Below are positions 28,172 to 53,251 of a stretch of DNA of 64,000 nt, piece after piece. The position numbers were made by a program, and so were the translations under genes. The stretch is from Cyanobium sp. Aljojuca 7A6 (GTDB lineage Bacteria > Cyanobacteriota > Cyanobacteriia > PCC-6307 > Cyanobiaceae), in assembly GCF_024346455.1 (NCBI RefSeq), contig NZ_JAGQCY010000012.1, positions 1 through 64,000 on the forward strand, read 5' to 3'. Numbering within the stretch: the first letter of the stretch is position 1; every line of letters begins with the position of its first letter. Under the pieces are notes generated by a model. That model had not been told where the DNA came from, did not search any database, and saw only the letters and a list, made by a program, of their open reading frames with translations.

Positions 28172-31080
28172 GGGGAGGGCGGCCGGTGGGGCAGCTGCAG
28201 GCGGGTCAGCGCGTCGGCCATCAGGGCCAGGCCGCGCTCCCGGCTCCAGGTGGCGCGGGCGTAGTGGAAGGCGGCGGCGGCCATGGTGCGCCAGGTGTCG
28301 TCGTCGTCGGTGAGCTGGAGCACGGCCTGGCACCAGTCGTCGGGGTTGCGGGCGATCAGCACCTCCTGGCCGTGGCGCAGGCCGGTGGCTTCGGCGGCCA
28401 GGGGGCTGAGCACCTGGGGCAGGCCGTGGGCGGCGGCGGCCACCACCTTGCCCTTGAGACCCGCACCGGAACGCAATGGCGCCACGAAGACGCGATGGCG
28501 GGCATACACCGTGGCCGGATCGGCCACCCAGCCCTCCACGACCACGCCGGCTTCGGCAGCCCAGCGGGCGGCAAGTTCAGCTTCGAGGCCGCTGCCATAG
28601 AGGTGCAGCCGCAGTTCGGGCCGCCTCTGCTGCAGCGCGGGCCACACCTGCAGCAGGAAGGCCTCGACGGCGTCGCGGTTGGGGGGATGGCCGTAGCTGC
28701 CCAGGAAGGCGAGGCCCGTGCGGCCCTCGAGGGGGGCGGGAGCCTCCGGGCCGTGCACCACCCAGGGGCAGGCGGCGGTGGCGGCCTCGCCGAGGGTTTC
28801 GGCCTCGATCACCGCCCGCTCCACCTCGGAATAGCTGAAGGTGAGATCCACCTGGCGCATCACCGCCAGCTCCTGGCGCTTCACCTCCTCCACCGCTTCG
28901 AGGGCGCGGCGGCCCGCCTCGCCCTCCAGAGCCTCGGCGCGGGCGGCCCGCAGCTGGCGTAGGTGGTGCAGATCGGCATTGCAGAAGAGCAGGCGGGCCT
29001 GGGGGGCGTGGCGCTGGATCAGGGGCCGGGCCGGGGCGGCCACCGTGTGGCGGGTGAGATAGATGAGGTCGAACTCGCCGCCCCGTTCGCTCAGGAACTG
29101 CTCCAGGGACAACACGAAGGGGGCGTGGAGGCACTCGATGCCGCGGCGCTGCAGCGCGTCGCTGTAGTTGGCCAGCCAGGCCAGGTTGAGGGGGAGGAGT
29201 GACACCTTCCAGCCCAGGGCCTGGAGCAGTTCGATCTCCACCAGGGCGGCGTGGCTGCCGGCATCGCGATCGGGCCGGGGGGTTTCCTGGTCGAGGAACA
29301 GGGCGCGGCCGAGGATGCCCCGGTCCTTGATGGTTTCGGCGCCGGCGTGGCTGGGCTCAAGGCTGCCCTCAAAGGCCGCGGCCCATTTCTGCTGGAAGAC
29401 GGGGCCGTTGACCGCCTGGAAACGCTTGAGGCCGGTGGCGGCACCCGTGTCGGTGCCGCAGCTCAGGCCCTCGTGGTGGATCACCCGGGCCAGGGGGGCA
29501 TAGCGCACGGTGTGGCCGGCCTGGCGCACCTTGAAGGCCAGGTCGGTGTCTTCGTAGTAGGCGGGGGAGAATTCGGGGCTGAAGCCGCCGAGCTGGTTCC
29601 AGAGCTCGCGGCGGATGGCGAGGGCGGCGGCGCTGACGTAATCCACCTGGCGGCCATAGGCCATGCGGGGGTCGTGGGGGTTGCCGCCGCGGCCGTAATT
29701 CCAAGGCTCGCCGTTGCCCCAGACGATGCCGCCGGCCTCCTGCAGGCGGCCGTCGGGATAGAGCAGCTGGGCCCCCACCAGGCCGATGTCGCCCCAACGG
29801 TCGAAGGGATCGAGCAACTCCTCCAGCCAGGCGGCGCAGGGTTCGGTGTCGTTGTTGAGCAGCACCAGAAAGGGGGCGCGGGCGGCGGCGGCGCCGCTGC
29901 AGCAGGCCTGGTTGAAGCCGCGGGAAAAGTCGTGGCGGATGACCTTCACCCCGGGGGCCTCGGCGGCCAGGGCGTCCGCCGTGCCGTCGCTGGAGCCGTC
30001 GTCGACCACCAGCACCTCGAAGGGAACACGGGTGGGGGCGTAGGCGATCGCCGCCAGGCAGCGGCGGGTGACGCCGTACTGGTTATGCACCGGGATCACG
30101 ATCGACACCAGGGGATCGGCCGCGATCGGCAGCTGCAGGGGCTGGCGCGGCACGGCGCCGCCGTCGGGGCCGGTTTCCTGGTTTGAGGCGCCGCGGGGCA
30201 GGGGGTGCTCGAGCAGGCGCTGCAGCAGGGGCAGGTCGGCGGGCAGGGGCGTGCCGTGGGCATCGGCCCAGCAGAGCCAGGTGCGCAGGCTGCGGTAGCG
30301 CTCGCGGGCCAGGGGCGAAAGCTCGTCGGGGAAGGGGGGACGGGCGTGCTGCTGCAGGGCCGCCCAGGGGGTGAGGTGGAAGGGCAGCAGCTCGAAGCGC
30401 TGATCCAGCACCTGGCCGGCACCGGTTTCCAGCTGCAGGTGGTGGATGGTGCCGTCGGCGAGGGCGGTGGGCAGCAGCAGCTGGAAGGGCCAGGGCCCCT
30501 GGGGCAGGGGCTCGGGGGGGGCGATCGGCAGGGTGGTGCTGCCGTCGAGGCGCAGCAGCAGGGGCTCGGGGCCGCGGCCCCAGCCGTGCAGCAGGGGGGT
30601 CTGCAGCTGGGTGAAGGCGCCTTCGCGGATGGGACCGTGCTGGCGCTGCTGGTCGATCTGGCTGTAGGTGTCGGCATCAAGGCGCATCGGACTGCCGGGC
30701 AGTTCGGTGCCGCTGGCCTCGACCAGCACCCGCAGCACCAGCCCCTGGGAATAGGCGGGCAGGGGGTGGGAGGGGCCCCACCAGAAGCGGAAGCCGCAGG
30801 GTTGCTCGATGCCCAGTTGCAGCAGATCAGGCCGGGCCTGGGCCGCCATCAGCTCGGCGATCAGCCGGCGCTGGCCTGGATCGAGCAGGTCGTCGAGCAC
30901 CAGCTGCAGGCGCAGGGGCGCGGCCTGGGGCTGCAGGGGCCAGGGGCAGGCCCAGCCGGCCAGGCCGCTCTGGGGGCTCCAACCCTCCAGCTGGCCCACC
31001 AGGCCGGGGCGACGCCATTCGGCGAGGGAGGCGGTGGTGGGTTCCAGGGTGCCGGGCGGCTCGGCGAGCATCGCAGCCAT
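28168..31080 (-). CDS. Large two-domain glycosyltransferase (GT2 plus GT-B)
   Basis: A 970-residue protein. After a non-catalytic N-terminal third, residues about 320-560 are a GT2 domain: SIVIPVHNQYGVTRRCLAAI, EVLVVDDGSSDGTADAL, LLNNDTEPCAAWLEELLDPF, and PAYYEDTDLAFKVRQAG. The C-terminal third looks like a GT-B/GT4 domain (LAFLGSYGHPPNRDAVEAF, LHLYGSGLEAELAARW, VFVAPLRSGAGLKGKVVAA). Such fusions transfer two sugars in surface-polysaccharide or glycoprotein synthesis. It heads the five-gene overlapping chain with the type I exporter and is divergent from the gene at 31136. Confidence 0.87.
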   Translation of the reverse strand: MAAMLAEPPGTLEPTTASLAEWRRPGLVGQLEGWSPQSGLAGWACPWPLQPQAAPLRLQLVLDDLLDPGQRRLIAELMAAQARPDLLQLGIEQPCGFRFWWGPSHPLPAYSQGLVLRVLVEASGTELPGSPMRLDADTYSQIDQQRQHGPIREGAFTQLQTPLLHGWGRGPEPLLLRLDGSTTLPIAPPEPLPQGPWPFQLLLPTALADGTIHHLQLETGAGQVLDQRFELLPFHLTPWAALQQHARPPFPDELSPLARERYRSLRTWLCWADAHGTPLPADLPLLQRLLEHPLPRGASNQETGPDGGAVPRQPLQLPIAADPLVSIVIPVHNQYGVTRRCLAAIAYAPTRVPFEVLVVDDGSSDGTADALAAEAPGVKVIRHDFSRGFNQACCSGAAAARAPFLVLLNNDTEPCAAWLEELLDPFDRWGDIGLVGAQLLYPDGRLQEAGGIVWGNGEPWNYGRGGNPHDPRMAYGRQVDYVSAAALAIRRELWNQLGGFSPEFSPAYYEDTDLAFKVRQAGHTVRYAPLARVIHHEGLSCGTDTGAATGLKRFQAVNGPVFQQKWAAAFEGSLEPSHAGAETIKDRGILGRALFLDQETPRPDRDAGSHAALVEIELLQALGWKVSLLPLNLAWLANYSDALQRRGIECLHAPFVLSLEQFLSERGGEFDLIYLTRHTVAAPARPLIQRHAPQARLLFCNADLHHLRQLRAARAEALEGEAGRRALEAVEEVKRQELAVMRQVDLTFSYSEVERAVIEAETLGEAATAACPWVVHGPEAPAPLEGRTGLAFLGSYGHPPNRDAVEAFLLQVWPALQQRRPELRLHLYGSGLEAELAARWAAEAGVVVEGWVADPATVYARHRVFVAPLRSGAGLKGKVVAAAAHGLPQVLSPLAAEATGLRHGQEVLIARNPDDWCQAVLQLTDDDDTWRTMAAAAFHYARATWSRERGLALMADALTRLQLPHRPPSP

Positions 31081-31135
31081 GCTGGAATCGTTGGCGGAAC
31101 CCTATTGCCCCTGTCCCGCTTTGTCTCGTTCCGCC

Positions 31136-32785
31136 ATGGACCCGGCAGGCGGTGAACCGATGCTGCGGGTGCCGTTGCGGTTGCTGCGGGAGCTGGCGCT
31201 GCCCTACCCGGCGTATCACCAGCTGATCGCCGCGCTGCGGGCCGAGGCGGGCGTCGCTGCCGACGATCCCCTGCTGGCGGAACTGACCGAAGCCAGTGCC
31301 ACGGCCCTGCGGCAGGCCCTGGAGCAGCGCCAGCTGGAGGCGGCCCTGGCCGCCCACGACGACCTGCTGGACCACCTGATCGAGCTGGCGGCGGTGCGGC
31401 CGCAGGTGGCGGCGGTGCTGTGGCAGCGCTACGGCGATCTGCTCGGCCAGCTGACGGGTCAGGTGCACGAGCGGTTGGTCCCCCGCGACGGGGCGCCGGT
31501 GGATTTCAGCCTTGCCGAGCGGGCCGGCGACGGGGCGCTCTGCCTGCGCATGGCGGCGATCCTGGAGCCGACGGCGGCCCAGCCCTGGGCGGTGCCCGAT
31601 TGGTTGCCGGTGCTGGAGCAGCAGCTGGTGCAGCATGGCGCCCTGGCCTGGCAGCAGAGGGTCCCGGTGGAGGCGGCCGCCGCCGGGCCCTGCCTGGATC
31701 TGTTCCTGCGCCTGGGCCAGCTGCTGGATCCCGTGCCTGCGTGGGTGGAGCTCGCCTGCCGCGCCGCGATGGGCCAGGTGATCGAAGCGGTGCCCCCCGC
31801 CGGCGCCCTGGAGGAGTCGGAGCTGGCCCTGCTGGTGGCGCGGGTGGGGCGGCTGCCGGTGGCGGCGGAGCAGCGCGCGGCCTTCGATGCCGCCCTGCTG
31901 CGGGCCCGCTTCAGCCTGGAGCTGCTGCAGCAGGGCCGCGGCACGGTGGGCCGACCTGCCGCCGAGGGCCTGGAGGTGCTCGAGGCCGAGTGGCTGGAGG
32001 AGGACGACGAGGCGCCGGCGCCCTCCCTGCCGGCGGTGGAGTGGCGCCCCGGCGCTCTGGTGGTGGAGCTGGATGCGCTGGAGCTGCAGCTGCTGCGCCA
32101 CGCCGAAGGCCCCCCCGAGAGCCTGGAGGAGGCCCTGGCCGAGCTGCGCCGCCGCCACCACGACAGCGACTTCTGGGGCGCGGCCGCTGGGGAGCCCGAC
32201 CCGCTGGAGCTGCTGCGCCGCTTCGAGCTGGAGGCCGGCTTCTACGCCACCACCCAGGCGCCGCTGGAGAGCCTGCGGCAGTGGGCCCGGCCGGCGCTGC
32301 AGGCCTTGCTGCAGGCCCAGGTGTGGAGCGGCGACGGGGCCACCCTGGAGCTGTGGGAACCGTGGGGGCAGGCGGGCCAGCGGCGCCAGCCGCCGCGCGG
32401 CTCCGAGCTGCTGGAGCGGCTGGGTGGTGGTGAGGTGCTGCTGGTGGGCGAGACCCCCGAAGCGTCCGAGGTGCTGCTGGCGGCCCATCGGGCCGGCCGG
32501 CTGTTTGCGGGGGGGGCGTTTGGCCTGCGCTGCCTGGCGGTGCCCGAGAGCCGGCATCCGCAGCGGCCCGCGGCTGGCTTCGAATACAGCCTGGAGGCCC
32601 TGGTGGCGGCGGTGGAGGCGCTGTACCAGGAGAGGCCGTTCACGGTGCTGCTGGCCGGGGGCGGGGCCTACCGGCTGCCCCTGGCCCAGACCATCGGCAG
32701 CCGCTACGGCGTGCTGGCGGTGGCGGGGGCCACGTCGCTGGCGGCGTGGCTGGGGGGCGAGGCGGTGCCGGAGCTGGGCCGATGA
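31136..32785 (+). CDS. Large hypothetical protein, possible GT-D-like C-terminal domain
   Basis: A 549-residue Ala/Leu/Glu-rich, helical protein from ATG 31136. The last 130 residues contain an alpha/beta pattern (GSELLERLGGGEVLLVGET, then RPFTVLLAGGGAYRLPLAQT and YGVLAVAGATSLAAWLGG) that resembles the end of DUF1792/GT-D glycosyltransferases by eye. I am not certain of that assignment. It is divergent from the large glycosyltransferase (55 nt apart), and the next gene overlaps its stop by 4 nt. Confidence 0.55.
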   Translation: MDPAGGEPMLRVPLRLLRELALPYPAYHQLIAALRAEAGVAADDPLLAELTEASATALRQALEQRQLEAALAAHDDLLDHLIELAAVRPQVAAVLWQRYGDLLGQLTGQVHERLVPRDGAPVDFSLAERAGDGALCLRMAAILEPTAAQPWAVPDWLPVLEQQLVQHGALAWQQRVPVEAAAAGPCLDLFLRLGQLLDPVPAWVELACRAAMGQVIEAVPPAGALEESELALLVARVGRLPVAAEQRAAFDAALLRARFSLELLQQGRGTVGRPAAEGLEVLEAEWLEEDDEAPAPSLPAVEWRPGALVVELDALELQLLRHAEGPPESLEEALAELRRRHHDSDFWGAAAGEPDPLELLRRFELEAGFYATTQAPLESLRQWARPALQALLQAQVWSGDGATLELWEPWGQAGQRRQPPRGSELLERLGGGEVLLVGETPEASEVLLAAHRAGRLFAGGAFGLRCLAVPESRHPQRPAAGFEYSLEALVAAVEALYQERPFTVLLAGGGAYRLPLAQTIGSRYGVLAVAGATSLAAWLGGEAVPELGR

Positions 32786-47136: not shown

Positions 47137-48714
47137 CTATGTGCTTGCAAAGTTGCATACAAAGCGATCGGCTGTAATCACAATCACAAAATCTGGACAT
47201 ACTTGCCGAATAATTGCTGAACGCAGATCAAAGCCACGGTCCCAAATAGATATTACTTCATTAAAAATGAGAGATAGAGAGGGCAGGATATTTGTTGCAG
47301 TGTAATCTCGGAAGACTAGAACTCTCTTTTGTATGGGTGCTTGAGGATTTCTGAATACCAGCTTTGGCCGTGTTGGCGAAAGGAAGGAGAAGGCCGTTGT
47401 GTCAAAATCGCTTTGATGAACAAAATCTGGAAGATTTTGCGGGAAGTGAACAATGTATGATGTATTCTGAAGGCCTGTCTGGTCACGTGGGAGATTTTTG
47501 AAGTGACTGTAACAGATCCTTGTGTAGGATCGAAGATCTTCTTGCGTCTGTACTGCAAGATCTCCAAGCCAGCTTCCAAGGCAAGGAACTGAGAAATTGT
47601 CTGGGATATCATCTAGATATATTTTAAGATCTGAAAGCATAATTGTTACCATTAGCCTCAGGAGCTGCAGGGACCCTAATGCAGTTGTATGCGTATCTCC
47701 ATGATAGTATAAATCACCATATCCCTTTTTTGTTACTAAGAACGGAGCGGTATTAACAAAGTAAGGGCGATTACTGCCAATATGCATTGATGGATGATCT
47801 TTTATGGCCTGCTGAATATCGCTAATCCACGGGCCAGAGAGGCAATATGGAAGAAACTCGGGATATACTGTATATTTCTCGGGAATTGAGAATACTCCAT
47901 ATGGAATATTCATTGATAAGCATGAATCGCCAAGTTCATCAAAATGAATAGTATTTGCTTTGAGTTTAGCGTTGTTGGGGCCATTCAGCCCCAAGTACTG
48001 TCTTATTGAGTATGATGCGTCATTGATTAAGTAATAGTGTGAGCTCTCAGCGGGCATGCTCTTGGTTGGCGAACAGGCCTGTTCGAGATAGCAAGCAGTT
48101 TCGTAGAGGCTAGATCCACTTGGTGGTGTGTATAGCGAGTAAAACCCAATTCTCATCCTTGCGACGCCTGGAAGACTATCAATGTAGGAAACTCCATACT
48201 TGTGAGAAGACTGATTCTCCCTTCCAAGGATAATTGTTTTGCTTGAATCTAGGCATAGAAAACATCTCAACAACTCAGCTGCATTAGGCTCGGAACTAAG
48301 ATCGATGTTGAGGAAACTTAGATGTGAGTTCTCAGAGAAGAAGCACGTTATCTCTTCCTCCTGCTTTTTGTGATCTTCAAGCCACTTAAGGGCTGTGCTG
48401 TTGTCAAAGCCGAAGTAACTGGATACTGACTTTCTAAGTAAGTCTGTGCTCCGATATGTATTAATAAAGAAAGCATCAGGATGTGCCAGGCTAAGCGCCT
48501 TGTAGTGTCTTCTTGTCGGGTGGTCGGTAAATGCTTCATAACCAGAATTGGCAACATAGCTGAGAATGGCTTCAGTCTCATTTTTGTTAGACATCTCAAT
48601 CTGTTGTTTGACCGCCCATTCATAATGATGAATTGACTTGAATCCTGCAGCTTTCAAAAAATAGTGCATAGATGTTGTGCCCGTCCTGGAATTGCCAATG
48701 CAGAAGATCTTCAC
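47137..48714 (-). CDS. Sulfotransferase fused to an AlgJ/AlgX-like SGNH domain
   Basis: A 525-residue protein. Residues 1-170 resemble a P-loop sulfotransferase: FCIGNSRTGTTSMHYFLKAA is the PAPS phosphate loop, and INTYRSTDLLRKSVSSYF the 3'-phosphate region. Residues about 190-525 resemble AlgJ/AlgX-type alginate-acetylation domains: PEKYTVYPEFLP, the GDTHTT motif (Asp340 and His342, like the catalytic D-x-H pair) and VLVFRDYTATNILPSLSLIF, where the usual GDSF nucleophile motif is RDYT, without the Ser. The C-terminus CPDFVIVITADRFV is also family-like. It may sulfate a surface glycan; the SGNH domain may be inactive. Confidence 0.72.
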   Translation of the reverse strand: MKIFCIGNSRTGTTSMHYFLKAAGFKSIHHYEWAVKQQIEMSNKNETEAILSYVANSGYEAFTDHPTRRHYKALSLAHPDAFFINTYRSTDLLRKSVSSYFGFDNSTALKWLEDHKKQEEEITCFFSENSHLSFLNIDLSSEPNAAELLRCFLCLDSSKTIILGRENQSSHKYGVSYIDSLPGVARMRIGFYSLYTPPSGSSLYETACYLEQACSPTKSMPAESSHYYLINDASYSIRQYLGLNGPNNAKLKANTIHFDELGDSCLSMNIPYGVFSIPEKYTVYPEFLPYCLSGPWISDIQQAIKDHPSMHIGSNRPYFVNTAPFLVTKKGYGDLYYHGDTHTTALGSLQLLRLMVTIMLSDLKIYLDDIPDNFSVPCLGSWLGDLAVQTQEDLRSYTRICYSHFKNLPRDQTGLQNTSYIVHFPQNLPDFVHQSDFDTTAFSFLSPTRPKLVFRNPQAPIQKRVLVFRDYTATNILPSLSLIFNEVISIWDRGFDLRSAIIRQVCPDFVIVITADRFVCNFAST

Positions 48715-50211: not shown

Positions 50212-51687
50212 TCAGTTTCCGCCCTTGGCCAGCTCCAAAAGCTGGTCAGCTAATAGATACTTCTCCTGCTGGCGATTGCCGTCCACCAGCCAGCGATGCC
50301 GCCGGTAGAAGGCGATTGAGGCGCCCAGCTGCTCCTCCAGCGTCCAGCTGTTCTCCCAGTCGCGGCGCCCCTCGGCGGCCGCCCACCCCGGCAGGGCGAG
50401 CGCCTGGCGCGTCCAGGGCAGGATGGCGTGCCGCTGCCGGCCCAGTTGCTCCACCGGGCTGCCCAGGCCAGGCCGCTCCCCGCCGGGTTCCTGCCCCAGC
50501 CGGCCGATCAGATCCTCCAGCAGCGTCTCCAGCACCTGGTTGCTGGGGTGGTTGAACGTGTGGAACAGGGCCATCGGATGGCCTTCCCCGTTGTGGTTCG
50601 CCTCCAGCCACGGGGAGATCCGCAGGTCGCATTCCTGTTCCCGTCGCGCCAGCTCCTGCAGGGAGCGCCGGTGCCAGGCCTGCAGCAGCGCCTCCATCTC
50701 CAGGGTGCAGGCCAGCGCCAGGATCTCATCGGCCTCCAGGCCGCGCTCGGCGGCCGCCATCGCCAGGAAATCGTGATAGTCGCCCAGGGGAGATTCGCTC
50801 GCCAGGCCGGGCAGTTCGCCCCGGTCGTCGTGGGCGTAGCCGATCGTGGGGTGGTAACCCTCGTAGTGCAGATTCGGCAGCACCACAGCGCCAGCCCCCT
50901 TCGGCAGCAGGGCCTGCAGGGTGGCCCCATCCAGGCCGATGCCGTCGCGGTAGCCCGGTGTCACGCGGTGCATCACCAGCACCTGCGTGTCGCCCAGCAC
51001 CCGGTGCAGCTCCGCCACATCCTCCGCCGTGGCCATGTGCACCGGCGCGCAGTAATGGAAGCGATGGGAGGGCAGGGCCCGCTCCAGCCCCAGAAAGATC
51101 GGGTGGCTCTGGCAGTTCCCCACGATCGTGATCAGGCTGTCCGCCGCGGGCCAGGGGGGCGCTCCGGCGCCGGCACCGGGCATCGCCAGAAGCGCCTCCC
51201 GGTACACCGGCACCCAGTCCGGCAGGGGATCGTGATACGTCCCCAGCGTCTCGAGCATCTCCAGGGCCGTGGCGCCCAGCTCCTGCCGTTGCCGGGCGGG
51301 GGTGTCGTCGTCGCGGCTGGTCAGTTGCCGATGGATCCAGATGGATCCGTAGCGGCAGAACTGCTCATGGTGGATCGCCACCCACGCCGCCTGGGGGGAG
51401 CCCTGATCCAGCAGGTGGCCGAACAGCCGTGCGCCCCAGCAGGCCAGGGCAATCGCTTCATCGGGGTCGCTCTCGGCCACCGCCAGCATCTGCTGGTAGC
51501 AGGCCAGGCCCAGGTCCCTGAGCAGCTCCTGCTCGTCGGCCTCCAGCGGGGCCTCGGAGGCGGTCACCCCGTCCCACACCAGCTCCGCCACCCTGGCCAG
51601 CCCCTGGCGCCGCAGGCATTCCCTGGCCAGATCCAGACAGGCGGCCCGACCCCTGGGCGTTTCGGCTGGCAACGGGGTGTGTGCCAT
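50212..51687 (-). CDS. WcbI-type polysaccharide biosynthesis protein with shared N-terminal domain
   Basis: A 491-residue protein. The C-terminal part begins SLITIVGNCQSHPIFLGLER, the WcbI motif (GNCQ), in a family of putative acetyltransferases for capsular polysaccharide. The N-terminal about 170 residues are a separate helical domain (EAIALACWGARLFGHLLDQ, WVAIHHEQFCRYGSIWIHRQ) that also occurs at the start of the adjacent, divergently transcribed GT61 protein. Start ATG 51687. Confidence 0.78.
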   Translation of the reverse strand: MAHTPLPAETPRGRAACLDLARECLRRQGLARVAELVWDGVTASEAPLEADEQELLRDLGLACYQQMLAVAESDPDEAIALACWGARLFGHLLDQGSPQAAWVAIHHEQFCRYGSIWIHRQLTSRDDDTPARQRQELGATALEMLETLGTYHDPLPDWVPVYREALLAMPGAGAGAPPWPAADSLITIVGNCQSHPIFLGLERALPSHRFHYCAPVHMATAEDVAELHRVLGDTQVLVMHRVTPGYRDGIGLDGATLQALLPKGAGAVVLPNLHYEGYHPTIGYAHDDRGELPGLASESPLGDYHDFLAMAAAERGLEADEILALACTLEMEALLQAWHRRSLQELARREQECDLRISPWLEANHNGEGHPMALFHTFNHPSNQVLETLLEDLIGRLGQEPGGERPGLGSPVEQLGRQRHAILPWTRQALALPGWAAAEGRRDWENSWTLEEQLGASIAFYRRHRWLVDGNRQQEKYLLADQLLELAKGGN

Positions 51688-51781
51688 CCAGAGGCTTCGG
51701 CCCCCCTGCCGGATCGATCAGGATCGGCCCATGATGGCGGCGACGCACGGGTGCCAGAGTTGGCTGTGCTGCACCGAAGCC

Positions 51782-53251
51782 ATGGGTGACGCCCGCCAGC
51801 TCGCGGAGGCCTGCCGGCAGCTGTCACCCCTGGCCGTGCTGGAACCGGCCGAACGCGACCGGTTGCGCCAGCTTGGTGCCGCCGGCCATCAGCGCATGCT
51901 GGACCTGCCCGAGGAGCAGCGCTACGAGGCCATCGCCCTCGCCCTCGATGGCGCCCGGCTCTACCGCTGGCTGCAGGACACCAGCCCCGAGGAGCCCGGC
52001 TGGGTCGCCGTGTTCGAGGAACAGTTCTGCCGCTATGGCGCGCTCTGGATCAAGGACCAGGGCCGATCCGATCCCCATCTGGCCGCTCAGGCGCTGCCGC
52101 TGATCGACCGTCTGCTGCAGTTCCATCCGGCGCAGCACGACTGGATCCACGCCACCCGCCAGCAGCTGGAGCAGGCCGCTGCCCCCATCCCCCTGGGCTT
52201 CTTTGCACCGCCCCCGGCTCCAGCCCCCTTCCCCTGGCCGGAACCCCTCCACACCTACCGGCTCAGCCACCGCCTGGCCGGCAACGCCATCGTGCTGCCC
52301 ATCGGCGCCATCGCCGACGGGGAATGGTTCAGCGACTGCCTCCAGTACCTCCCCGCCGGCTGGCCCGAGGCCCCCTGGATGCAGCAGCTCGCCGGCTACC
52401 AGCTGCAGCGCGATGGCGACAGCCTCAGCCTCCGCCCCCTGCCCGATCCGGAGCCCGCACCCCTTCGCCTGGAGGGCACCTGGTGCGTTCTCAACGACAT
52501 CGTCGGCCACCGCAACCTGGGCCACTTCTTCCACGACACCCTCCCCCAGCTGGCGGCCATCCGCCGGCTTTCCAGCGAGCTGGGGGAGTTGAAGCTGCTG
52601 GCCAACCGTGAACGCTTCGCCAACCTCGCCCACCTGCGTCGCCTGCTCTGGCCCGGCGCGGTGCAGTTCAGGGACGAACTGCCGGCCTCCTTCAGCGTCG
52701 AGCGCCTCGTGCTCCAGCCGGTGGCCTGCAACGGCGGCAGTGGCTTCCATCCCCATCACCAGCGCACCTGGACCTTCGCCATCGAGGACTACCGCGACGG
52801 GGTGGACCTGCTGCGCCGGGAGCTGCATCAGCCCACGCCGCCTTTCGCGCTGCAGGATCACTGGATCTACTTCAGCCGCAATCTGGCGGCCCCCACCGAA
52901 GTTCCCCATGGTCGTGACTTCAGCAACCACGCCGAACTGCTCGAGCAGCTCAGCAACCACGGCGTGCTGCTCCTCGATCCGGGATTCCACGACATCCGGG
53001 CTCTCCATGGCCTGATCAGCCAGGCCCGGGGCTTCCTCGGCATCCATGGGGCCGGCCTGGCCAATGCCCTGCTCGCCCCGGAAGGCACCCCGGTGATCGA
53101 AATCCGCCCCCACGGCGGCGCCTGGCTGATGCTGGAACTGGCGGGCCGCTCCGCCGGCCTCGACTGGCAGGTGCTCAACTGCCCCGCCGATCCAACCGTG
53201 CCAGGACGCAGCGTGCTGCCCATCCAGGACCTGCTCGAGCGGCTCCGGTAG
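51782..53251 (+). CDS. GT61-family glycosyltransferase with shared N-terminal domain
   Basis: A 489-residue protein. The C-terminal about 300 residues have the GT61 (DUF563) pattern: NDIVGHRNLGHFFHDTLPQL, IYFSRNLAAPTEVPHGRDFS, and GIHGAGLANALLAPEGTPVI with EIRPHGG. The N-terminal 130 residues (YEAIALALDGARLYRWLQDT, WVAVFEEQFCRYGALWIKDQ) are homologous to those of the neighbouring WcbI protein. ATG 51782 is the start. Acceptor and sugar are unknown. It converges with cysS, 5 nt apart. Confidence 0.8.
   Translation: MGDARQLAEACRQLSPLAVLEPAERDRLRQLGAAGHQRMLDLPEEQRYEAIALALDGARLYRWLQDTSPEEPGWVAVFEEQFCRYGALWIKDQGRSDPHLAAQALPLIDRLLQFHPAQHDWIHATRQQLEQAAAPIPLGFFAPPPAPAPFPWPEPLHTYRLSHRLAGNAIVLPIGAIADGEWFSDCLQYLPAGWPEAPWMQQLAGYQLQRDGDSLSLRPLPDPEPAPLRLEGTWCVLNDIVGHRNLGHFFHDTLPQLAAIRRLSSELGELKLLANRERFANLAHLRRLLWPGAVQFRDELPASFSVERLVLQPVACNGGSGFHPHHQRTWTFAIEDYRDGVDLLRRELHQPTPPFALQDHWIYFSRNLAAPTEVPHGRDFSNHAELLEQLSNHGVLLLDPGFHDIRALHGLISQARGFLGIHGAGLANALLAPEGTPVIEIRPHGGAWLMLELAGRSAGLDWQVLNCPADPTVPGRSVLPIQDLLERLR

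What the first reader, a model, noticed from the sequence alone, without database searches (positions are those of the whole stretch)
50212..53251. Divergent WcbI and GT61 genes share a homologous N-terminal domain
Residues about 45-168 of the WcbI protein and 25-130 of the GT61 protein align (EAIALA..GARL, WVA..-EQFCRYG-.WI..Q). The two different catalytic domains thus carry the same unknown helical module, which might dock both enzymes to one scaffold or glycan. A module shared by neighbours of different fold points to a functional partnership.
Basis: seen in the sequence. Interest (0 to 1): 0.55.

Follow-up and report, generated by a model that had tools for sequence, protein, structure and literature searches.

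The report
Shared helical module links sugar-coat enzymes
Two neighbouring cyanobacterial genes for very different sugar-coat enzymes carry the same undescribed helical domain, and in relatives the two enzymes are fused into one protein, which suggests that they work together and offers a testable partner for an enzyme (WcbI) whose partner has been missing.

Summary
WcbI residues 46-166 (50212-51687, -) and the start of the divergent GT61 protein (51782-53251, +) are 40% identical, E=1e-19; Smith-Waterman 212 against at most 63 in 1000 shuffles. The stretch is a confident all-helical domain (pLDDT 89) without a match in Pfam, NCBIfam or PDB sequences, found almost only in the window's family group (32 of 400 genomes, a lower bound). 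It precedes WcbI, GT61, an FkbM methyltransferase, a GT2 enzyme and unknown domains. Most telling, two relatives encode module-WcbI-GT61 as one polypeptide; in all 6 of 300 genomes where close GT61 relatives were found (window included) they are fused to, or divergent neighbours of, module-WcbI; and the WcbI and GT61 trees agree where comparable. Two further domains also alternate between fused and neighbouring states. Partnership is well supported; that the module does the docking is inference. Published WcbI binds CoA, is inactive alone and was proposed to need a partner; GT61 is a concrete candidate. Likely history: one multidomain enzyme became a divergent pair, each half with a module. 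New domain family, known kind of arrangement.

The parts
50212..51687 (-). module-WcbI protein, 491 aa (putative CoA-dependent acyltransferase)
   Evidence: PF18588 E 5.2e-50; the paper's Cys14 and His201 align with invariant C and H of 9 module-WcbI proteins including the window's
51190..51552 (-). helical module core in the WcbI protein (aa 46-166)
   Evidence: 40% identity to the GT61 protein, E=1e-19; AlphaFold2 of aa 1-182 pLDDT 89.2, pTM 0.81
50488..51132 (-). WcbI catalytic domain (aa 186-400)
   Evidence: PF18588; PDB 4bqn E 0.0016 by single sequence, 6.9e-13 by profile of 9
51688..51781 (.). 94-bp divergent intergenic region between the two ATG starts; no sigma-70-like promoter or terminator pattern found in 51500-51950
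51782..53251 (+). module-GT61 protein, 489 aa from the ATG conserved in the nearest relative
   Evidence: PF04577 E 1.3e-12; start conservation; GT-domain fold matches POMGNT2, Foldseek E 3.8e-9
51833..52168 (+). helical module core in the GT61 protein
   Evidence: five helices between residues 22 and 133 of the 489-aa model, mostly pLDDT over 80, followed by a linker under pLDDT 50
52520..53098 (+). GT61 catalytic domain (Pfam stretch)
30809..32785 (+). third, more distant module-bearing protein in the window; C-terminal part has no Pfam match
   Evidence: A2 HMM E 2.7e-4 among 5100 ORFs; not found by the own-genome search with the two-row profile; no Pfam match

Best explanation
The shared stretch is an undescribed, lineage-restricted helical accessory domain. 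WcbI and GT61 act as one functional unit on a surface glycan: GT61 adds a sugar to an acceptor, and the CoA-loaded WcbI acylates that sugar or acceptor. In the ancestor the unit was probably one polypeptide, module-WcbI-GT61, still seen in two relatives. In the window's lineage it exists as two divergently transcribed genes, each with a module. The module most likely holds the enzymes together, or to a common assembly, by helix-to-helix contacts. Shown: homology, predicted helical fold, fusions, neighbourhood, agreeing trees. Inferred: order of events, acyl transfer, docking.
For: Homology. Fusions module-WcbI-GT61 in L095 (G084) and L094 (G192) with both Pfam domains above cut-off; their GT61 parts are 51-52% identical to the window's. 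The GT61 subfamily was found in 6 of 300 family genomes (E<=1e-15, window included; at most 7 candidates a genome were scored), all 6 fused to or divergent neighbours of module-WcbI: 3 divergent with modules on both, 2 fused, 1 divergent without a module on GT61. Trees agree on the split between the G084/G286 side and the G192/window-trio side (GT61, 100/99; WcbI, branch to the G084 and G286 side 99/99, G192 unresolved on the other side). Other partners alternate between fused and neighbouring: a sulfotransferase-like domain (fused in G286, next gene in G192 and G102) and an unclassified ~390-aa domain (fused in 3 genomes, behind an in-frame TAG in G032, separate neighbour in G194). Of 12 genomes with two or more module matches, 10 have two within 10 kb; three of the ten are the divergent pair itself and G059 is doubtful. 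WcbI was reported to bind CoA, to be inactive alone, and a partner presenting the acceptor was proposed (PMC4104973, abstract, one section and passages). Outside cyanobacteria, one Sulfitobacter plasmid has GT61 directly upstream of WcbI, after a gene with a sub-threshold sulfotransferase match.
Against: No binding or activity data. G286 has the GT61 partner without a module, so the module is not strictly needed for the association. None of 26 scanned distant-set proteins has WcbI, and 23 of them show no Pfam domain. Foldseek gives no solved structure for the module at E<=0.001 and the Z scores (up to 12) are within the range common for helical proteins. The module tree does not place GT61 modules with those of their own WcbI neighbours (AU p 0.038, post hoc). 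The sulfotransferase-like label is weak (best Pfam E 0.039 and 0.01, below cut-off), and only 4 of 11 genomes with that enzyme have it within 2.5 kb of a module match. Of 4 plasmid WcbI loci only one has a recognised neighbouring GT61, and that GT61 does not align with the window's.
Confidence: 0.6

Rival explanations
1. The module binds a common ligand (glycan, lipid carrier or membrane) rather than another protein; each enzyme finds the same substrate on its own.
For: The module occurs on different glycan enzymes and keeps invariant or nearly invariant W, C, R and G residues that could line a pocket; G286 GT61 does without it while its WcbI neighbour keeps it.
Against: Model resembles helical repeat and TPR-like folds used mostly for protein contacts (the use is recalled), though weakly; no carbohydrate-binding family matched 5 modules.
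Confidence: 0.2
2. The module has no joint role: it is a structural part of the WcbI protein that stayed on GT61 as a leftover of duplication and splitting of a fused gene.
For: Fused forms exist; a partial duplication with reciprocal loss explains two modules; G286 GT61 has none.
Against: GT61 modules keep the conserved motif although only 40-43% identical to the window's WcbI module, and form a supported clade of 3 genomes (100/99), which suggests constraint; relatives of the module also sit on other enzymes.
Confidence: 0.12
3. The module acts only inside its own chain, for stability or regulation of each catalytic domain.
For: 14 of 18 strong cases carry WcbI on the same chain.
Against: The domain is separated from GT61 by a low-confidence linker (residues 135-192, pLDDT under 50), and catalytic partners of several folds would need different contacts.
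Confidence: 0.1
4. Chance or compositional similarity of helices.
For: None beyond A- and L-rich helices.
Against: E 1e-19, z 31 against shuffles, profile E 2.9e-34.
Confidence: 0.01

Closest known systems
WcbI of Burkholderia pseudomallei (PDB 4bqn/4bqo; PMC4104973, Pfam PF18588)
   Same: Catalytic domain is a PF18588 member; the cysteine and histidine named in the paper align with invariant residues here.
   Different: The crystallised protein is 312 residues and begins with the WcbI domain, so has no such module; here the domain follows a helical module and, in relatives, is fused to other enzymes.
GT61 glycosyltransferases (Pfam PF04577; POMGNT2 structures)
   Same: Catalytic domain above the Pfam cut-off; predicted fold matches POMGNT2.
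   Different: Extra N-terminal helical module with a low-confidence linker; fused to WcbI in two relatives.
TPR-bearing glycan enzymes (for example O-GlcNAc transferase, recalled)
   Same: Helical domain in front of a glycan-active catalytic domain.
   Different: No TPR model matches the module; its motif in the close set is W-V-x(4)-EQ-x-C-R-Y-G.

Membership tests
WcbI (PF18588) | Pfam model above curated cut-off | tested here: met
   170.4 bits against 29.2
WcbI (PF18588) | Cys14 and His201 near the CoA thiol | tested here: met
   profile of 9 module-WcbI domains aligns G-x-C-Q and N-H-P with Cys14 and His201 of 4bqn, E 6.9e-13; both invariant in the 9; residues named
WcbI (PF18588) | CoA binding and acyl transfer | not testable with these tools
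   needs protein; acyl transfer is unproven even for the crystallised member
GT61 (PF04577) | Pfam model above curated cut-off | tested here: met
   48.6 bits against 27
GT61 (PF04577) | Fold of a solved GT61 enzyme | tested here: met
   POMGNT2 6xfi Foldseek E 3.8e-9 on a model of pLDDT 69.8; that POMGNT2 is a GT61 enzyme is recalled
GT61 (PF04577) | Glycosyl transfer activity | not testable with these tools
   needs assay
TPR | Match to a Pfam TPR model | tested here: not met
   No TPR family for 5 modules at E up to 10 (filters drop most weak matches)
TPR | Stacked helical hairpin fold | tested here: inconclusive
   Z 9-12 to designed helical repeats and FKBP TPR domains, within the usual range for helical models

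The most novel reading that the evidence does not exclude
The module is a new plug-in docking domain through which picocyanobacteria assemble interchangeable glycan enzymes (WcbI acyltransferase, GT61, sulfotransferase-like and FkbM enzymes, others) into one surface-polysaccharide decorating complex; and a glycosyltransferase that holds the acceptor is the missing partner of WcbI acyltransferases in general.
Probability: 0.33. Interest if true: 0.8.

Novelty: new variant of a known kind. Interest (0 to 1): 0.58.

Why it matters
WcbI is a CoA-binding capsule enzyme whose activity was not detected with the isolated protein and whose partner was left open in its structure paper. Natural fusions and a conserved divergent pair name a concrete partner class, a glycosyltransferase, in harmless cyanobacteria, so the question can be tested with purified proteins. 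The module is also a handle for finding other enzymes of the same pathways, many of which have no assigned family.

Tried and rejected
Considered and rejected: (1) chance or low complexity. (2) Recent duplication or gene conversion inside the window: 56% nucleotide identity and a module tree that keeps GT61 modules apart from the neighbouring WcbI modules (AU p 0.038). (3) GT61 modules derived from the G084-type fusion: AU p 0.002; from the G192-type: not rejected, p 0.10; GT61 and WcbI modules of the trio together with G194: not rejected, p 0.07. (4) A plain TPR family member: no Pfam TPR. (5) Phage or plasmid origin of the module: no relative in one viral-contig scan (8 pattern matches, none confirmed) and none in 72,556 plasmids. 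(6) Wider spread: the phylum search gave 5 of 386 genomes; the only one outside the window's family group (G562) is a 31-column match at E 3.4e-4 and is not counted as real. (7) WcbI in 59 genomes drawn from the phylum, own genome included: only the own genome. (8) The distant set was found with the A2 profile, so its profile match (probability 98.7, E 2.8e-16) is not independent; 20 column shuffles gave E 0.18 or worse. (9) The hypergeometric value 9.6e-10 for co-occurrence of GT61 and module-WcbI ignores relatedness and is not used as a probability. (10) No GT61 was recognised beside the WcbI of Ruegeria and Paracoccus (annotation only) or Rhizobium tropici (five ORFs scanned by Pfam).

Limits of the counts: the genome search scored only a capped number of candidates a genome (11, 9 and 7), and one search missed a G005 copy that one search listed and the third copy in the window, so module and GT61 counts are lower bounds.

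Led nowhere: PDB sequence search with the module (0 matches), NCBIfam (0 of 5 proteins), relaxed Pfam on the C-terminal parts of four module proteins without WcbI or GT61 (0 of 4) and on the unclassified ~390-aa domain (0), promoter scan, paper searches on Cyanobium glycosyltransferase domains (0), on WcbI-domain terms (0), on Rosetta-stone terms (0), on WcbI with glycosyltransferase as whole words (0), by word start (1, PMC5894113, where the passages show an unrelated label WCB_I) and with glycosyl transferase (0). The GT61/acetyltransferase search and the Cyanobium polysaccharide search were seen as listings only.
Full report
Observation. The minus-strand one, 50212-51687, has the WcbI domain PF18588 at aa 186-400; the plus-strand one has PF04577 GT61. 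BLASTP of the two whole proteins gives one significant alignment, 49 of 121 identical, E=1e-19, confined to the N-terminal parts. Smith-Waterman against 1000 shuffles: 212 against a maximum of 63. GT61 modules of 3 genomes against 14 WcbI modules by profile: E 2.9e-34. The GT61 start is better placed at ATG 51782 than at GTG 51677, as the nearest relative shares the residues from there; the two ATG starts are then 94 bp apart.

What the module is. It has no match in Pfam (five modules; no TPR; only chance-level matches at E 0.27 and worse), none in NCBIfam for the two whole proteins and none in PDB sequences for the WcbI module. AlphaFold2 on WcbI residues 1-182 with 33 window and locus sequences gives pLDDT 89.2 and pTM 0.81, all helix. 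In the GT61 model (pLDDT 69.8 overall) the corresponding five helices are mostly over 80, then comes a linker under pLDDT 50 (residues 135-192) and the GT domain. Foldseek finds no solved structure for the module at E<=0.001; VIA-align gives Z up to 12 with designed helical repeats, FKBP TPR domains and 14-3-3 proteins, which the tool itself calls ordinary for helical models. I call it TPR-like in shape only. Conserved among the 15 rows of the close set: invariant W102, E108, C111, R112 and W158 and nearly invariant Q109 and G114, in the numbering of the window WcbI protein. With the distant set added (33 rows) only W102 and W158 stay invariant, with P100, G114 and L148 at 90% or more.

Who carries it. 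With the profile A2 it is found in 32 of 400 genomes of the window's family group (with the two-row profile A1, 20 of 300) and in 5 of 386 of the phylum sample, of which the one outside the family is a 31-column match I do not trust. Only a capped number of candidates was scored in each genome, so these are lower bounds. Names come from record titles of eight contigs of equal length: Cyanobium sp. CACIAM 14, Synechococcus sp. WH 5701, Synechococcus sp. GreenBA-s and others. Eighteen proteins match strongly (over 100 bits): 14 have WcbI (L102 and L106 (-) by the family search), 3 have GT61 only, and 1 (G150) has a C-terminal part with a weak DXD-glycosyltransferase match, E 0.072. A second, distant set of 29 ORFs, including window 30809-32785, matches at 16-43 bits and aligns with the strong set over 129 columns (not independent, since the set was found with that profile). 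Of 26 of these scanned, 3 had a Pfam match at E<=0.01: GT2 (L074), FkbM methyltransferase (L077), and a sub-threshold sulfotransferase (L080); 23 had none (L086, L087 and L081:904-1719 were not scanned).

WcbI with and without module. PF18588 was found in 19 of 300 family genomes, 21 matches. By the module search and by inspection 13 of the 21 have the module and 8 do not. Of those 8, three put in the tree stand apart on a long branch (92/96), one has true TPRs in front (L123), one is followed by a long further region (L120) and one is a fragment (L126). C-terminal to module-WcbI (14 proteins including G344): nothing in 6 (window, G005, G268, G194, G059, G111 C8); GT61 in 2 (G084, G192); an unclassified ~390-aa domain in 3 (G257, G227, G344) and, behind an in-frame TAG, in G032; a sulfotransferase-like domain in G286 (best Pfam E 0.039, below cut-off); a weak GT-D-like match in G111 C210 (below cut-off).

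Partnership. The GT61 parts of the two fused proteins are 51-52% identical to the window's over about 340 residues. Searching 300 family genomes with that GT61 profile at E<=1e-15 gives 6: the window, G005 and G268 (divergent pair, modules on both), G084 and G192 (fused), and G286, where GT61 has no module and is the divergent neighbour of module-WcbI-sulfotransferase-like. So 6 of 6 are fused to or beside module-WcbI; at most 7 candidates a genome were scored. The GT61 tree joins G084 with G286 and G192 with the trio (100/99); the WcbI tree has the same split, with the branch to the G084 and G286 side at 99/99 and G192 unresolved on the other side. Fusion occurs on both sides, so an ancestral fusion with two separations, or two independent fusions, are both possible; I prefer the first. 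GT61 modules of the trio form one clade (100/99) outside the clade of WcbI modules of the trio, G194, G257 and G344 (91/89).

The same alternation with other partners. The sulfotransferase-like part of G286 has 52-55% identical separate relatives near module genes: immediately downstream of the fusion in G192, overlapping the open frame of a module gene in G102, and 1.6 kb from module-FkbM in G157. In 251 family genomes that enzyme occurs in 11; in 4 (G192, G102, G157, G059) it lies within 2.5 kb of a module match, in G032 about 11 kb away, in G072 over 600 kb away, and for the other 5 no module match is listed. The window's genome has none. The ~390-aa domain is a separate neighbour of module-WcbI in G194 (28% identity, E 3.6e-20, L104 10869-12230). 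In G194 the divergent neighbour of module-WcbI carries two modules in tandem (L104 7456-9402). Of 12 genomes with two or more module matches, 10 have two within 10 kb on one contig; three of these are the divergent pair itself, in G059 the stretch is partly masked and doubtful, and in G111 and G286 the matches are on different contigs.

Outside the family. tblastn of the WcbI domain against plasmids finds 4 of 72,556 records. In Sulfitobacter sp. W027 a GT61 gene (PF04577 E 1.5e-14) ends 28 bases before WcbI, and the gene before it has a sub-threshold Sulfotransfer_2 match (E 0.007). This GT61 is not alignable with the window's by BLASTP, so only the family is shared. Paracoccus has WcbI (unannotated there), a glycosyltransferase and a sulfotransferase (PF03567 E 2.2e-6); Ruegeria a glycosyltransferase and a pyruvyl transferase; in Rhizobium tropici no GT61 among five ORFs scanned. 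The module is absent from the plasmids.

Mechanism. The WcbI structure paper (PMC4104973; abstract, section 3.4 and search passages read) reports CoA binding, a disulfide of CoA to Cys14, contact of acetyl-CoA with Cys14 and His201, no activity in three assays, and proposes a partner that presents the acceptor. The window WcbI domain aligns with the solved chain at E 0.0016, and a profile of 9 module-WcbI domains at E 6.9e-13; Cys14 and His201 align with a cysteine and a histidine invariant in all 9. I therefore propose: GT61 builds or holds the acceptor, WcbI acylates it, and the modules keep the two (and elsewhere other decorating enzymes) together. Shown: homology, fusion, adjacency, agreeing trees, predicted helical fold. 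Inferred: docking, acyl transfer, direction of history. The setting, beside a nucleotidyltransferase gene (PF00483) and what look by eye like dTDP-rhamnose genes, fits surface polysaccharide.

Verdict. Confirmed observation, interpretation partly supported and widened. A new domain family in a known style of modular glycan enzyme. In the held library I found no paper that links WcbI with a glycosyltransferase by those words; subscription papers are not covered.

Noticed in passing
window 30809-32785 (+): Third module-bearing protein, of the distant set; no Pfam domain, and a C-terminal G-A-Y-x-L-P-L motif shared with several others.
   Followed up: partly
window 47137-48714 (-): Sulfotransfer_4 domain in the first 114 residues; the C-terminal half looks by eye like an AlgJ/AlgX-type SGNH acyltransferase, unverified.
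   Followed up: no
   Followed up: partly
L122 / L103 (G032): module-WcbI gene with an in-frame TAG before the end of the WcbI domain; the rest of the domain and the ~390-aa C-terminal domain follow in frame. Broken gene, sequencing error or programmed event not decided.
   Followed up: no
L147 1815-4900, Sulfitobacter sp. W027 plasmid: Sulfotransferase-like, GT61 and WcbI genes in a row on one strand.
   Followed up: partly
L120 (G186), L123 (G147): Other WcbI architectures without the module: WcbI followed by a long C-terminal region that looks by eye like a DXD glycosyltransferase, and true TPR repeats in front of WcbI.
   Followed up: partly
L073 / G286: Record titled Microcystis elabens, yet the genome with a contig of equal length carries the same genus code as the window's genome; likely a naming relic.
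   Followed up: no
G059 C82 (L027, L030): Two near-identical module stretches in overlapping, partly masked frames beside a sulfotransferase-like gene with two in-frame stops; possibly an assembly artefact.
   Followed up: no
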